Below are positions 1 through 31,456 of a stretch of 64,000 nucleotides of DNA, piece after piece (position 1 is the first letter of the stretch; each line of letters opens with the position of its first letter). The stretch is taken from positions 1 to 64,000 of the IMG/VR virus record IMGVR_UViG_3300037493_006316; one strand, given 5' to 3'. The DNA comes from a virus. Below the pieces are notes generated by a model, which was not told the DNA's origin, searched no databases, and worked only from the letters and a program-made list of their open reading frames with translations. Made by a program: the position numbers and the translations under genes.

Positions 1-158
1 TCGAGCGCGCGGTCGGCGCCGAGCACGTCGACGAAGGTGACGCCGGCCACCGCCGGCGGGCCATCGGGGATGACCAGCACGTCGGGGCCGGTGTCGTCGG
101 GGTTGCCGCACGCGGACAGCACCGCGCCAGCGAGAAGGGCGAACAGGACGCGGTGCAT
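1..158 (-). CDS. Putative lipoprotein, 3' part outside the window
   Basis: The ATG at 156-158 is preceded by AAGGAGCCCCC, a clear ribosome binding site. The first residues, MHRVLFALLAGAVLSAC, form a short lipoprotein signal peptide with lipobox LSAC, so the mature protein would start at the cysteine and be membrane-anchored. About 52 codons are visible before the left edge and none is a stop. The rest (GNPDDTGPDVLV and onward) is acidic and not recognised. It is the most downstream visible member of the leftward block. A role in lysis (Rz1-like spanin) or in host-surface modification is possible, but only the signal peptide is evidence. Confidence 0.6.
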   Translation of the reverse strand, partial: MHRVLFALLAGAVLSACGNPDDTGPDVLVIPDGPPAVAGVTFVDVLGADRAL

Positions 159-8417: not shown

Positions 8418-8667
8418 GACGGACTCCAAGGGGGAAGGTGGCCGGGTATTCGCTCGCTTGCGCGAGCCGCCTCCCGGCAGGGCGACCATTTTAGAGTGTC
8501 GGCACTCTGAAAGTGGGTTTGTTTCAATGGGGCTCGGGTCTTGTCCCCGAGAGGTATTGTTATTTTGCGGGCACTGACGTCGGTTTTGGGATGTCTCAAT
8601 GAGCGCCACCCCGAAGGGCACCGGGCTTTCACCGGTCCGCGGCGGGGGCCGCGGGGCCTTGCGAGAC
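8418..8667 (-). promoter_or_regulatory. AT-rich control region before the MoxR gene
   Basis: This 250-base gap has no convincing gene. It has much lower GC than its surroundings. It contains a perfect 6-bp hairpin, AGAGTG-TCGG-CACTCT (8493-8508), and two near-repeats on the minus strand that begin CATTGA (g/a)ACA, near 8601 and 8527. These look like promoter or operator elements, but no single -35/-10 pair stands out. Confidence 0.4.
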
Positions 8668-8976
8668 TCAGGCCGCCTCCTCCCAGAGGTCCGGCAGGCA
8701 GTCCCAGGCGTCGACCGCCTTCTGCCATTCGAGGTGCGCCTCGTACCAGCCGGAGTCCTCTTCCTCGCCCTCGGCCAGGGCAAGGGCGGCCGTCTCATGC
8801 GTGCGCAGGGCGTCGGCGGCGGCCTCGAAGGCGGCCATGCGCTCGGGCTTCGCCAGCCCGTTGATGTGCTCGGCCTCGTCGGCCGACTCGCAGCTGAGAA
8901 ACTGCCGCTCGGCGGCGCGGGCCTTGGTGGCGGAGCCCTGGGCGAGCTTGATGGCGTTGCGGGCGAGGCTGTTCAT
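8668..8976 (-). CDS. Hypothetical acidic helical protein, 102 aa
   Basis: The ATG at 8974-8976 has a strong CAGGAGCCCGCC ribosome binding site and lies ~55 bases after the promoter at 9031-9058. The protein begins MNSLARNAIKLAQGSATKAR, is almost wholly helical and carries an acidic LALAEGEEEDSGW patch. It has no recognised domain. It is monocistronic or first in an operon. Confidence 0.6.
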   Translation of the reverse strand: MNSLARNAIKLAQGSATKARAAERQFLSCESADEAEHINGLAKPERMAAFEAAADALRTHETAALALAEGEEEDSGWYEAHLEWQKAVDAWDCLPDLWEEAA

Positions 8977-25436: not shown

Positions 25437-26287
25437 TGCGCCCGCACTCTCCCGCCCTTGACGCGATCCTGGGCCAGCGCTTCGACGTCCTCGATCACGG
25501 CTTCGTCCGCGTGATCGACTACATGGGGGACGACGCTGCGGTGGTCCAAGCCGCGCGGGTGTCCTACGGCGAGGGCACTCGGGCCGTGCGCGAAGACCGC
25601 GGGCTCATCCGCTACTTGATGCGGCACCGCCACACGACGCCCTTCGAGATGTGCGAGCTGAAGCTCCACGTCAAGCTGCCGGTCTTCGTGGCCCGCCAGT
25701 GGATCCGCCACCGGATGGCGAACGTCAACGAGGCCAGCGCCCGCTACAGCGTGATGGATCGGGAGTTCTACCTCCCGGCGCCCGAGGCTGTGGCGCTCCA
25801 GTCCGCCGACAACAAGCAGGGCCGGGGGGAGGCGGTCGACCCGCACACCGCGGCGTCGTTCATTGAGGTCCTGACCAAGGTCTCGGCCCAGGCCCGCGAG
25901 GACTATGACGGCGCGCTCGAAGCCGGCATCGCCCGGGAGCTGGCCCGGATCGGCTTGACCTTGAACACCTACACCGAGTGGTACTGGAAGATCGACCTGC
26001 ACAACCTGCTGCACTTCCTCGCGCTGCGCATGGACGCGCACGCGCAGATGGAGATCCGCGTCTACGCCGACATCATCGCCGGCATCGTGGCGCAGTGGGT
26101 GCCGCTGAGCTGGGAGGCCTTCGAGGACTACCGGCTGCACGCGGTGACCTTCAGCCGGGGGCAGCTCTCCGCCCTGCGGGTCGCCCTCAAGGGCCAGCCG
26201 GTGTCGCTCGCCGAGCACGGCATCACCGCCCGCGAGCTGCGGGACCTTGTCGAGGCCACGGGCCTCGAAGACGTGGAGGTCCGATGA
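25436..26287 (+). CDS. thyX: Flavin-dependent thymidylate synthase
   Basis: The ThyX signature appears as RHRMANVNEASARYS at residues 91-105 (consensus RHRxxSxNExSxRY, with Ala in place of the first Ser). It follows QWIRH and is preceded by TPFEMCELKLHVKLPVFVAR, which provides dUMP/FAD contacts. The late ALRMDAHAQMEIRVYA matches the conserved LR..HAQ.EIR substrate-binding block. The enzyme makes dTMP from dUMP using FAD and folate, supporting phage DNA synthesis. Full length at 283 aa. Confidence 0.95.
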   Translation: MRPHSPALDAILGQRFDVLDHGFVRVIDYMGDDAAVVQAARVSYGEGTRAVREDRGLIRYLMRHRHTTPFEMCELKLHVKLPVFVARQWIRHRMANVNEASARYSVMDREFYLPAPEAVALQSADNKQGRGEAVDPHTAASFIEVLTKVSAQAREDYDGALEAGIARELARIGLTLNTYTEWYWKIDLHNLLHFLALRMDAHAQMEIRVYADIIAGIVAQWVPLSWEAFEDYRLHAVTFSRGQLSALRVALKGQPVSLAEHGITARELRDLVEATGLEDVEVR

Positions 26288-26883
26288 GCCTGATCATCAG
26301 CAACCGCGACGCCCTCGTTGCGCACGCCGCGGGCTGTTTGGCCGCCCGCCAGGCACAAGCCCCGGCGCCGCGCCTGCGCCTGGGCAACATCAGCGGCCTC
26401 GACTTCTCGGGGCTCAACCTCGAAGGGTTGACGCTGTTGGCGCCCTTTCTCGCCGGCGGGTACAACATCTCTCGCTGCAAGTTCCGCGGCAGCAACCTGC
26501 GGGGCGCGCGGCTGACGTTCCACGACCTGACGGGCGTGGACTTCACCGAGGCGGACCTGACCGGCGCGACGCTCTTCGGCGCCGACCTGCGCCGCGCGAC
26601 GATGGCGGGCGCCAAGGTCGCCGAGGGCGTGGTGCACGCGACCGCGCCGCTTCTCGCCAGTTTTGAGACCCGCGAGAACGACGAGATGTGGCACGCCTAC
26701 GCGCTCACCGACGGGCGCGTCATCCTGACCCTCGGCAACGAGCGCCAGCCGCTGGAATGGTGGCTGGCGAACGTCAAGGCTTGGGCCAAGGCCCGCGCCT
26801 ATGCGGACTGGCAGTTCCGGCAGAAGGTGGAGCCTGCCATCCGCAAGGCCCAGGAGCTGGCGGCAGAGGTGGCTCGTGGGTGA
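26284..26883 (+). CDS. Pentapeptide-repeat protein, 199 aa
   Basis: Residues ~35-120 contain A(N/D)LxG-type repeats: LDFSGLNLEGL, CKFRGSNLRGARLTF and VDFTEADLTGATLFGADLRR. These form a short right-handed quadrilateral beta helix. The last ~70 residues are a separate domain (ETRENDEMWHAYAL, LEWWLANVKAWAKARA) that resembles the end of phage-type small repeat proteins. Such proteins can mimic DNA and protect gyrase; that role is unproven here. ATG overlaps the thyX stop. Confidence 0.75.
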   Translation: MSLIISNRDALVAHAAGCLAARQAQAPAPRLRLGNISGLDFSGLNLEGLTLLAPFLAGGYNISRCKFRGSNLRGARLTFHDLTGVDFTEADLTGATLFGADLRRATMAGAKVAEGVVHATAPLLASFETRENDEMWHAYALTDGRVILTLGNERQPLEWWLANVKAWAKARAYADWQFRQKVEPAIRKAQELAAEVARG

Positions 26884-29491: not shown

Positions 29492-29520
29492 GCCCCGGCC
29501 TGCTGGTAGCAGACCGGGGC
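29492..29520. other. Intergenic hairpin, copy 2
   Basis: GCCCCGG-C-CTGCT pairs with AGCAG-A-CCGGGGC around GGT, a strong 12-bp stem with one mismatch. The flank TGACAGCACAAAG repeats that of copy 1. A TTTGTGC tract follows on the minus strand, but no minus gene needs it; it may act as a plus-strand mRNA end stabiliser. Confidence 0.5.
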
Positions 29521-29591: not shown

Positions 29592-30077
29592 ATGCTAACC
29601 ACGGCTTTCGCCCTGGCCTCCTACATACACGCGGGCCAACGCTACGGCAACCGTCCGTTCATCAGCCACGTCATCGACGTGCACGAAGTCATCGCCGCGC
29701 TCTACCCCGACGACGTCGAGCTTCAGGCCGCCGCCTACCTCCACGACGCCATCGAAGACGCCCCTGAAGGCATGGACGCGCGGCAGATGATCGCCGTGCG
29801 CTGCGGCGCCGGTGTGCTCGCCTTGGTCGAGGCCGTCACCGACGAGCCCGGCGAGACCCGCGCCGAGCGCAAGGTCAAGACCCTGCCGAAGACCGCCGCG
29901 GCCGGCTGGCGCGCGGTGGCCCTGAAGCTGGCTGACCGCAGCTGCAACATGCGCGGCCAGGCCCACGCCGCCATGTACCGGGCCGAGCTGCCCGCCTTCC
30001 GCGCCGCGCTCTTTCCGGTCACCGCTGAGCGCCCCGAGTTGGCGCCGCTGTGGGCCGGGCTGGGGGTGGTGTCGTGA
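29592..30077 (+). CDS. HD-domain (p)ppGpp hydrolase-like protein (SpoT/MESH1 type)
   Basis: The motifs follow the SpoT-hydrolase order: HAGQRYGNRPFISHVIDVHE (residues 13-32), AAYLHDAIEDAPEG (His51-Asp52, then Glu55-Asp56) and VALKLADRSCNMRG (~111-124). These provide the metal-binding H...HD...D set and the ED pair. At 161 aa there is only the hydrolase domain and no synthetase, as in MESH1. It would remove the host alarmone or a related nucleotide. ATG at 29592 after GGAGCCTCA; coupled to the ATP-grasp gene. Confidence 0.75.
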   Translation: MLTTAFALASYIHAGQRYGNRPFISHVIDVHEVIAALYPDDVELQAAAYLHDAIEDAPEGMDARQMIAVRCGAGVLALVEAVTDEPGETRAERKVKTLPKTAAAGWRAVALKLADRSCNMRGQAHAAMYRAELPAFRAALFPVTAERPELAPLWAGLGVVS

Positions 30078-30832
30078 TCGCCTGGATTGCCACCGACAAC
30101 TCGGATGGCGGCCCGCTCGCCTTCGACCATGACTTTGTGGCCATCGCCGAGGGCTACGAGCGCCTCGGCTACGAGGTCAAGGCCCTGCGGACCACGATCA
30201 ACCCGCACCAGACCCGCCCGGTGGACATGGGCGGGGTGACGGCCGAGACGCCCGTGGTCGGCGACCTGCGGCTGCTGCCGCGGCTGGTGACCGCCCTTGG
30301 CGGTCGGTGGGAGCCGATGCCGTCGTGGCCGGAGCAGCTCCGGTACTACATGCGCCGCGACCTGTCCGAGATCCGCGCCGAGGATGCCATCGACCGCATC
30401 CTCAACGGCGAGCGCCTGTTCCTGAAGCTCGATCACAAGTGGCTGCCGGGCGCGATCTACGACCTGGGCAACGTCGAGGCGCTGATGAACATCCACGAGG
30501 GTACGTTGCTCATGCGGTCGGAGATCGTTGACTTTGCGGCTGAGTGGCGCATCTTCTACGATGAGCACGGCGAGGTGGAGCACATGGCGCAGTATCGCGG
30601 TGAGGCCCATCCCATCGGTGACGCGCACTTCGAGCACGTCCGGTCGGCCGGCAAAGCCTTCGGCCGCGCTCCGGCCGGGCTCAGCATTGACTTCGGCGTC
30701 ACGCGCGGCTGGCACCTGCGCGTCGTCGAGGCGCACGCCGGGCCCGCCCTGGGGCTCTACGGCCTGCCCCCGCTTCTGGCTGCCCAACGGCACCTCCGCG
30801 CATGGCGCGCGTGCTTCGAGGTGGCGCCATGA
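30074..30832 (+). CDS. ATP-grasp protein, R2K type
   Basis: The GTG at 30074 makes a GTGA overlap with the HD gene. LFLKLDHKWLPGAIYDLGNV contains the lysine pair region of ATP-grasp enzymes, MRSEIVDFAAEWRIFYDE gives the E-W-R-I/F strand typical of the R2K clade, and SIDFGVTRGWHLRVVEAHAG supplies the late D...VVE metal ligands. R2K ATP-grasp proteins are predicted to ligate amino acids or peptides and occur in phage and conflict-related operons. The product here is unknown. Followed by the receiver-like protein. Confidence 0.6.
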   Translation: MIAWIATDNSDGGPLAFDHDFVAIAEGYERLGYEVKALRTTINPHQTRPVDMGGVTAETPVVGDLRLLPRLVTALGGRWEPMPSWPEQLRYYMRRDLSEIRAEDAIDRILNGERLFLKLDHKWLPGAIYDLGNVEALMNIHEGTLLMRSEIVDFAAEWRIFYDEHGEVEHMAQYRGEAHPIGDAHFEHVRSAGKAFGRAPAGLSIDFGVTRGWHLRVVEAHAGPALGLYGLPPLLAAQRHLRAWRACFEVAP

Positions 30833-31245
30833 CGCCCTGGGTCGCCCTCCTGGCCATCGACGACGACCGCGACCGCTACGCAGAGCTGGCCCGCCGGCTG
30901 GCGCCGCACCGCGTGGCGGTGCTGGTCATGCACGAGGTCACCCGCGTCGAGCGGCGCCTGTCGACCGCGTCGACCGCGCTGCCCCTGGTCGGGATCTTCC
31001 TCGACCGAGACATGCCGGAGCGCGTGGGCGAGGACTGGGTGGCGCACCTGCCCGTCGATCTGCCGGTGTGCGTGTCGAGCGCCAACCGGGCCATGGCTCG
31101 GGTCGTCGCGGCGCGCCTGCGCGGCCGGGGCATCCACCACGTCGTGATGAGCGCGCTGGACGCCTCGCCCGAGTGGCCGTGGATGGGGTGGGCGCTCGAC
31201 GTGGTCGGTCGACATCGGCTTGCGGCCGCCCAGGCCCCGCGGTAG
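30829..31245 (+). CDS. Receiver-like (cyclic-phosphate-processing REC type) protein
   Basis: ATG at 30829 overlaps the ATP-grasp stop. AIDDDRDRYAELARRLA opens with an acidic triad like receiver domains; ALPLVGIFLDRDMPERVGED carries the second Asp strand (LDxD), and VCVSSANRAMARVVAARLRG matches the SSAN block seen in small phage receiver-like (cREC) proteins. Such domains are predicted to process cyclic phosphates in RNA or nucleotide repair. At 138 aa it is a single domain. The last codons overlap the promoter at 31220-31248. Confidence 0.5.
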   Translation: MTPWVALLAIDDDRDRYAELARRLAPHRVAVLVMHEVTRVERRLSTASTALPLVGIFLDRDMPERVGEDWVAHLPVDLPVCVSSANRAMARVVAARLRGRGIHHVVMSALDASPEWPWMGWALDVVGRHRLAAAQAPR

Positions 31246-31254: not shown

Positions 31255-31314
31255 GTTCTTCGCCGTCGCGCTTTCGGCGCTTGAGGCCCGCTGGGATGTC
31301 CCCGGCGGGCCTTT
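31255..31314 (+). ncRNA. Candidate ~60-nt small RNA or attenuated leader
   Basis: The predicted transcript from the promoter at 31220-31248 contains a GCGACG...CGTCGC hairpin near 31250-31270 and ends in the terminator at 31285-31314. No good gene lies inside it, though a weak 83-codon frame begins at ATG 31297. It may attenuate expression of the membrane protein gene at 31457. Confidence 0.3.
31285..31314 (+). terminator. Rho-independent terminator
   Basis: GGCCCGC (31285-31291) pairs with GCGGGCC (31305-31311), with a GG/CC inner pair, followed by TTTCG. It ends the rightward accessory operon or the short RNA from the promoter just upstream. Confidence 0.6.
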
Positions 31315-31456
31315 CGCTGTTGGCCTTGTTGCTGTTCCAGGGCCCTGGCTGCAACAAGGCGCGCCGAACCGTCCCCATGTTGCAGCCCGTTGCCATCGCA
31401 GCCGCTGCCGCGGCGCGCTACCTTCTCGCTCGGCTCGAACGGACGGAAGGTGCCCC

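What the first reader, a model, noticed from the sequence alone, without database searches (positions are those of the whole stretch)
29592..31245. Three-gene cassette: (p)ppGpp-hydrolase-like HD, R2K ATP-grasp and receiver-like protein
These overlapping genes combine an alarmone-type hydrolase with two small families linked to nucleotide or RNA repair and conflict. They could counter host stress signalling or a nucleotide-based defence after infection.
Basis: partly seen in the sequence, partly recalled or inferred. Interest (0 to 1): 0.6.

Follow-up and report, generated by a model that had tools for sequence, protein, structure and literature searches.

The report
Phage alarmone-hydrolase gene with two companions
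A phage carries three tightly overlapping genes: a well-supported enzyme of the family that erases bacterial starvation or alarm nucleotides, an unusual member of an ATP-grasp ligase family, and a small receiver-shaped protein; each kind is already known in phages, and only this exact trio is new.

Summary
At 29592-31245 three plus-strand genes overlap by 4 nt (GTGA, ATGA), between two strong hairpins, in a phage record of 86,223 b with a 127-bp terminal repeat.

Gene 1 is a small alarmone hydrolase (SAH). It matches HD_4, keeps every metal and catalytic residue, and its AlphaFold model (pLDDT 95.6) matches solved SAHs best. Most likely it removes 3'-pyrophosphate from (p)ppGpp/(p)ppApp or from toxSAS-pyrophosphorylated tRNA, sparing phage production from a translation shut-down. 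A phage SAH with that tRNA activity is published.

Gene 2 is an R2K-clade ATP-grasp protein. That family is predicted to make peptide bonds, not to repair RNA. The usual metal-site motif ExN-D is H-A here, against N in 53 of 55 aligned homologues and D in 52.

Gene 3 has a receiver topology in a low-confidence model. It lacks the conserved lysine and is not demonstrably a cRec.

The full triad was found nowhere else. SAH and R2K lie within 3 kb of each other in two other phage lineages, but 19-230 kb apart in at least seven. No alarmone synthetase was found in the record. Verdict: a new member of known kinds in a new arrangement; any joint function is unproven.

The parts
29492..29520 (+). Hairpin (7 + 5 bp stem around one mismatch, 3-nt loop) between the upstream gene and the HD gene; may mark the start of a separate transcription unit. 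No T-run, so not a textbook terminator.
   Evidence: Folding -23.3 kcal/mol, z -2.97; exact pattern unique in the window. Function inferred.
29592..30077 (+). Small alarmone hydrolase (HD_4), 161 aa; metal ligands H26, H51, D52, D115; catalytic E55-D56; N119; R17 at the position of the conserved arginine of Rel hydrolase domains
30074..30832 (+). R2K-clade ATP-grasp protein, 252 aa, GTG start; K118, K122, E157, R159, D206 and E219 kept; N to H at 221 and D to A at 222
30829..31245 (+). Receiver-fold (beta-alpha)5 small protein, 138 aa; acidic D10-D12, D58-x-x-M61-P62, S84-A85; Lys of the KP motif replaced (M109)
   Evidence: residue reading from the sequence
31275..31319 (+). Strong hairpin with short U-rich tail just after the third gene; likely transcription terminator of the cassette
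   Evidence: -35.3 kcal/mol, z -4.45, 0 of 200 shuffles as stable; function inferred

Best explanation
The first gene encodes a phage small alarmone hydrolase: a metal(Mn2+)-dependent HD enzyme that removes a pyrophosphate from a ribose 3' position. SHOWN HERE: family, fold and complete active site. INFERRED: the substrate is (p)ppGpp/(p)ppApp and/or 3'-CCA ends of tRNA pyrophosphorylated by toxSAS/CapRel-type abortive-infection enzymes, so that the enzyme keeps host translation and nucleotide pools usable during infection. The second and third genes are translated with it from one transcript (4-nt overlaps shown as sequence; co-transcription inferred). The R2K protein most likely modifies a protein or small molecule by ATP-dependent ligation, or is a degenerate binder, since its ExN metal motif is changed to ExH. 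The receiver-fold protein most likely is a small phosphate-handling or pseudo-receiver domain. They may serve the same anti-shutdown purpose, but no evidence shows that the three act together.
For: HD: Pfam HD_4 E 6.1e-12, over cut-off; phrog_990 'metal-dependent phosphohydrolase' 1.8e-22; closest solved relatives are SAHs, Mesh1 and Rel hydrolase domains. H26, H51, D52, E55, D56, D115 and N119 are invariant in 47 aligned sequences. AlphaFold model pLDDT 95.6 and Foldseek best hits C. glutamicum RelH, Mesh1 and P. aeruginosa SAH, TM (query-normalised) mostly 0.73-0.80. Phage SAHs are common: 81 records in the phage collection hold a match. A phage SAH, PaSpo of Salmonella phage SSU5, counteracts the toxSAS FaRel2 by removing its tRNA modification (PMC11559606). 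'HD-alarmone PDEase' of jumbo phages was already predicted to be counter-signalling (PMC7824862). SAH genes in some other phages sit near RtcB, PTH2 or RlaP, a translation/RNA-damage context. R2K: R2K_2 E 3.5e-16. Cassette: 4-nt overlaps and flanking hairpins.
Against: No biochemistry; SAH-fold enzymes also act on NADPH, CoA and PAPS, so the substrate is not fixed by family. No alarmone synthetase or toxSAS was found in the record, and the host and its defences are unknown. No tRNA genes were found in the window. The HD gene is a long lone branch among phage SAHs, so its substrate could have drifted. HD and R2K are far apart in most phages that have both.
Confidence: 0.6

Rival explanations
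1. The HD protein is a Mesh1-like metabolic 3'-phosphatase (NADPH to NADH, PAPS or CoA) that retunes cofactor pools for the phage rather than erasing an alarm signal.
For: Human MESH1 structures with NADPH and PAPS are among the best structural matches. Phage SAH genes lie directly upstream of NAD-salvage genes in Mesorhizobium phage Cp1R7A-A1 and about 2.5 kb from them in phiCbK. Bacterial orphan SAH promiscuity and MESH1 as a CoA phosphatase are reported (PMC9765508, PMC13221220, abstracts).
Against: No NAD-salvage or CoA gene was recognised next to this copy. The active site is the general alarmone-hydrolase one, so it cannot discriminate.
Confidence: 0.2
2. The three genes are unrelated accessory genes packed into one operon by genome compaction; only the HD gene has a counter-stress role and there is no joint function. 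(This can be true together with the best explanation of gene 1.)
For: The full triad was found nowhere else in 80 HD loci, 14 R2K viral loci, 30 bacterial R2K loci and 22 cRec loci. Phages with both SAH and R2K usually have them 19-230 kb apart. No receiver or cRec Pfam family was seen among 99 neighbours tested, of the 25 families listed.
Against: SAH and R2K lie within 3 kb in two other unrelated lineages, L050 and L132/L133. My rough uniform-placement estimate gives about 0.25 such cases expected in 10 lineages, which is suggestive but not decisive.
Confidence: 0.5
3. The receiver-fold protein is a cRec domain that opens cyclic phosphates (2',3'-cyclic RNA ends or cADPr-type signals), making the cassette a broad counter-nucleotide-signal unit.
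For: Best viral structural match of the model is an annotated cyclic-phosphate-processing receiver (E 9.7e-5). The sequence keeps DD, DxD and SxN at equivalent places (compare). cRec domains co-occur with nucleotide-processing genes in phages (PMC7824862).
Against: No PF20274 hit at E up to 10; profile comparison no better than the best of controls. The cRec DHD and HSxN histidines are absent. Canonical receivers match as well, and the model is low confidence.
Confidence: 0.2

Closest known systems
Small alarmone hydrolases of phages (PaSpo of Salmonella phage SSU5; HD-alarmone PDEases of jumbo phages; phiCbK and Nodularia phage HD proteins)
   Same: Single HD_4 domain, intact metal and ED motifs, phage-encoded
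   Different: At most about 41% identical to any other phage copy found over the matched segment; sits in an overlapping operon with R2K and a receiver-fold gene
R2K-clade ATP-grasp family 2/3 (DUF4343; CDC123-related)
   Same: Pfam R2K_2 and R2K_3 above cut-off; the two RAGNYA lysines, ExR, D and E conserved
   Different: ExN-D of 52-53 out of 55 homologues is ExH-A here; in a phage of about 86 kb rather than a jumbo phage
cRec, cyclic-phosphate-processing receiver (PF20274)
   Same: Receiver topology, small stand-alone phage protein, DxD and SxN
   Different: No family-level sequence match; DHD and HSxN histidines missing
Response-regulator receiver domain (PF00072)
   Same: (beta-alpha)5 order, acidic cluster, D58-xx-MP, S/T-A at beta 4
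   Different: Conserved lysine absent, below Pfam cut-off, no output domain

Membership tests
Small alarmone hydrolase (RSH hydrolase domain) | Metal ligands H...HD...D | tested here: met
   H26, H51, D52, D115 invariant in 47 sequences
Small alarmone hydrolase (RSH hydrolase domain) | Catalytic ED pair after HD, and N four residues after the last D | tested here: met
   E55-D56, N119
Small alarmone hydrolase (RSH hydrolase domain) | SAH/Mesh1 fold, single domain without synthetase | tested here: met
   pLDDT 95.6; best PDB hits are SAHs and Mesh1, TM up to 0.80; 161 aa
Small alarmone hydrolase (RSH hydrolase domain) | Hydrolysis of (p)ppGpp, (p)ppApp or tRNA 3'-PPi | not testable with these tools
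   Needs enzyme assay
toxSAS-SAH toxin-antitoxin module (FaRel/ATfaRel type) | Alarmone synthetase gene next to the SAH | tested here: not met
   No RelA_SpoT (PF04607) match in the whole record
R2K-clade ATP-grasp | Two RAGNYA lysines | tested here: met
   K118, K122
R2K-clade ATP-grasp | ExR in the first kinase-like strand | tested here: met
   E157-W-R159
R2K-clade ATP-grasp | ExN (or ExGD) metal motif in the last strand | tested here: not met
   E219-A-H221; N in 53 of 55 homologues. PMC4431377 notes N is occasionally replaced by other polar residues, so clade membership by profile stands while activity is doubtful
R2K-clade ATP-grasp | Pfam profile above gathering score | tested here: met
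   R2K_2 59.8 bits (cut-off 26.2), R2K_3 50.9 (26.3)
cRec (PF20274) | Family profile match | tested here: not met
   No hit at E up to 10; hhalign within control range
cRec (PF20274) | DHD and HSxN motifs | tested here: not met
   D58-R-D60 and S83-S84-A-N86
Response-regulator receiver (PF00072) | Receiver fold | tested here: inconclusive
   Single-sequence model pLDDT 60, Foldseek receivers E 7.5e-5
Response-regulator receiver (PF00072) | Conserved lysine at the end of beta 5 | tested here: not met
   M109 at the expected place

The most novel reading that the evidence does not exclude
SAH plus R2K is a recurrent phage counter-shutdown pair: the SAH clears 3'-pyrophosphate from tRNA or alarmones while the R2K enzyme tags or protects a component of the host translation apparatus, with the receiver-fold protein as a phosphate-responsive regulator in this version.
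Probability: 0.1. Interest if true: 0.65.

Novelty: new member of a known kind. Interest (0 to 1): 0.3.

Why it matters
If the SAH works as predicted it adds a divergent, high-GC-phage example to the few enzymes known to undo toxSAS/CapRel or stringent-response shut-down, an area where only one phage SAH (SSU5 PaSpo) was found tested in the papers read here. R2K enzymes have no proven substrate in bacteria or phages in the papers read; an R2K gene translationally coupled to an alarmone hydrolase gives a concrete, testable hint (translation/stress) about what they modify. The individual parts are otherwise ordinary.

Tried and rejected
Single-protein scans of viral contigs with each of the three proteins, and of bacterial contigs with the R2K protein, found no close relatives. 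PADLOC gave no defence label and NCBIfam no equivalog above cut-off. The SAH as antitoxin of an own synthetase: rejected, no PF04607 in the record. R2K as an RNA-repair enzyme by family: rejected after reading the founding paper, although RtcB precedes R2K in phage Tunturi_5 and RlaP follows it in L050. P0003 as a proven cRec: rejected as unproven. A general HD-R2K linkage: only partly upheld. It is present in L050 and L132/L133, and a catalytically degenerate HD homologue lies two genes upstream of R2K in phage XacN1. The two genes are far apart in phiN3, CcrColossus, Kabachok, BL47, GAP32, L111/L114 and L128, and no HD lies near 30 bacterial R2K loci. R2K profile search of the PDB found nothing. 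Receiver or cRec genes beside other HD or R2K genes: none found among 99 neighbours, of the 25 families listed. Host prediction by terminase gave only distant relatives of about 30% identity in several host groups, so the host was left open.

Full report
What is there. The window is the first 64 kb of a virus record of 86,223 b. Its last 127 bases repeat its first 127, so it is probably a complete genome, with 71.7% G+C. Terminase, capsid and DnaB genes make it a tailed phage. Three plus-strand genes follow one another at 29592-30077, 30074-30832 and 30829-31245 with 4-nt overlaps GTGA and ATGA. They end a rightward block that also holds ThyX and a pentapeptide-repeat gene. The block runs into leftward genes. 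Stable hairpins lie just before (29492-29520, z -3.0) and just after (31275-31319, z -4.5) the three genes, so they may be one transcription unit. That is inference; no sigma-70-type promoter was found.

Gene 1. The 161-aa protein matches Pfam HD_4 (E 6e-12) and PHROG 990 (E 2e-22). By sequence its solved relatives are small alarmone hydrolases, Mesh1 and the hydrolase domains of Rel/SpoT. In an alignment with 46 phage homologues the metal ligands H26, H51, D52 and D115, the catalytic pair E55-D56 and N119 never vary. R17 lies where Rel proteins have the conserved arginine nine residues before the first metal histidine (alignment). Its role in base stacking is from my general knowledge of RelSeq. 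AlphaFold with 47 sequences gives pLDDT 95.6, and Foldseek ranks C. glutamicum RelH, a Leptospira SAH, Mesh1 and P. aeruginosa SAH first with TM of 0.73-0.80. Membership in the SAH family is therefore secure; the substrate is not.

Gene 2. The 252-aa protein is above the Pfam cut-off for R2K_2 and R2K_3. The R2K clade was defined as ATP-grasp enzymes related to CDC123, predicted to make peptide-like bonds and to act in phage-host conflict (PMC4431377). R2K was later noted in jumbo phages (PMC7824862). This copy keeps both signature lysines, ExR, D206 and E219. At the metal-binding ExN motif it has H221 followed by A222, where 53 of 55 aligned homologues have N and 52 have D. Activity is therefore uncertain.

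Gene 3. The 138-aa protein has no recognised homologue in the collections searched. A single-sequence model (pLDDT 60, pTM 0.55) has receiver topology. Best PDB matches are response-regulator receivers; the best viral match is an annotated cRec. D58-x-x-M-P and S84-A85 fit a receiver, and the lysine is missing. A profile from 22 phage cRec proteins does not recognise it beyond controls. It is best called a divergent receiver-fold protein.

Survey for the triad. 80 HD loci, 14 R2K viral loci, 22 cRec loci (and L019) and 30 bacterial R2K loci were searched with profiles for the other families. No other triad appeared. SAH and R2K are close in L050 (about 155 bp apart, followed by RlaP and a nucleoside deoxyribosyltransferase) and in the related contigs L133 and L132 (one gene, or about 2.5 kb, apart). 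In the SAH tree L050 and L133 fall in different clades, and gene 1 is a lone long branch, so these would be separate associations. At whole-record level both families co-occur in several large phages but 19-230 kb apart. With a uniform-placement null I estimate about 0.25 close pairs expected in roughly 10 lineages against 2 seen. Phage accessory genes cluster, so this overstates the case. The link is a lead, not a result.

Mechanism. Published work shows that a phage SAH (PaSpo of SSU5) counteracts the translation-targeting toxSAS FaRel2 by removing the 3'-pyrophosphate it puts on tRNA (PMC11559606). SAH enzymes also promiscuously neutralise toxSAS products (PMC11782079), and CapRel-type enzymes defend against phages (PMC9712102, abstract). 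The most economical reading of gene 1 is an enzyme of this kind. The alternative that it acts on NADPH, CoA or PAPS is kept, because Mesh1 does so and because phage SAHs sit beside NAD-salvage genes in two phages.

Comparison and verdict. Each part is known in phages: HD-alarmone PDEases, R2K and cRec were all listed for jumbo phages in 2021 (PMC7824862), and a SAH is annotated in phage Adele with similar hypotheses (PMC12846349). What is new is the order HD-R2K-receiver with translational overlaps in a mid-size high-GC phage, and the altered R2K active site. I rate this a new member of known kinds, interest 0.3.

Noticed in passing
window 8589-8669, minus strand: Full-length twister-sister ribozyme (RF02681, 54.5 bits, model positions 1-81) at the 3' end of a small minus-strand ORF (8668-8976); a self-cleaving RNA in a phage.
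   Followed up: partly
window 1-127 and L005 end (record 86097-86223): 127-bp direct terminal repeat: the record is probably a complete phage genome.
   Followed up: partly
L002 5983-9075; L007 3914-8453: Phage SAH genes beside NAD-salvage genes (NMN adenylyltransferase/Nudix and nicotinamide phosphoribosyltransferase) in Mesorhizobium phage Cp1R7A-A1 and Caulobacter phage phiCbK; phiCbK also has RtcB and PTH2 nearby.
   Followed up: no
L050 4986-8281: SAH, R2K_3, RlaP (RNA-repair nucleotidyltransferase) and a nucleoside deoxyribosyltransferase in a row in a 205-kb viral contig.
   Followed up: partly
L165 4131-4706 (phage XacN1 ORF422): HD homologue with the catalytic HD and ED motifs replaced (HP, QA), two genes upstream of R2K: a likely non-catalytic SAH relative.
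   Followed up: partly
L167 3591-5780 (phage Tunturi_5): RtcB RNA ligase gene directly upstream of an R2K gene.
   Followed up: no
window 26284-26883: Pentapeptide-repeat protein gene directly after ThyX in the same rightward block.
   Followed up: no
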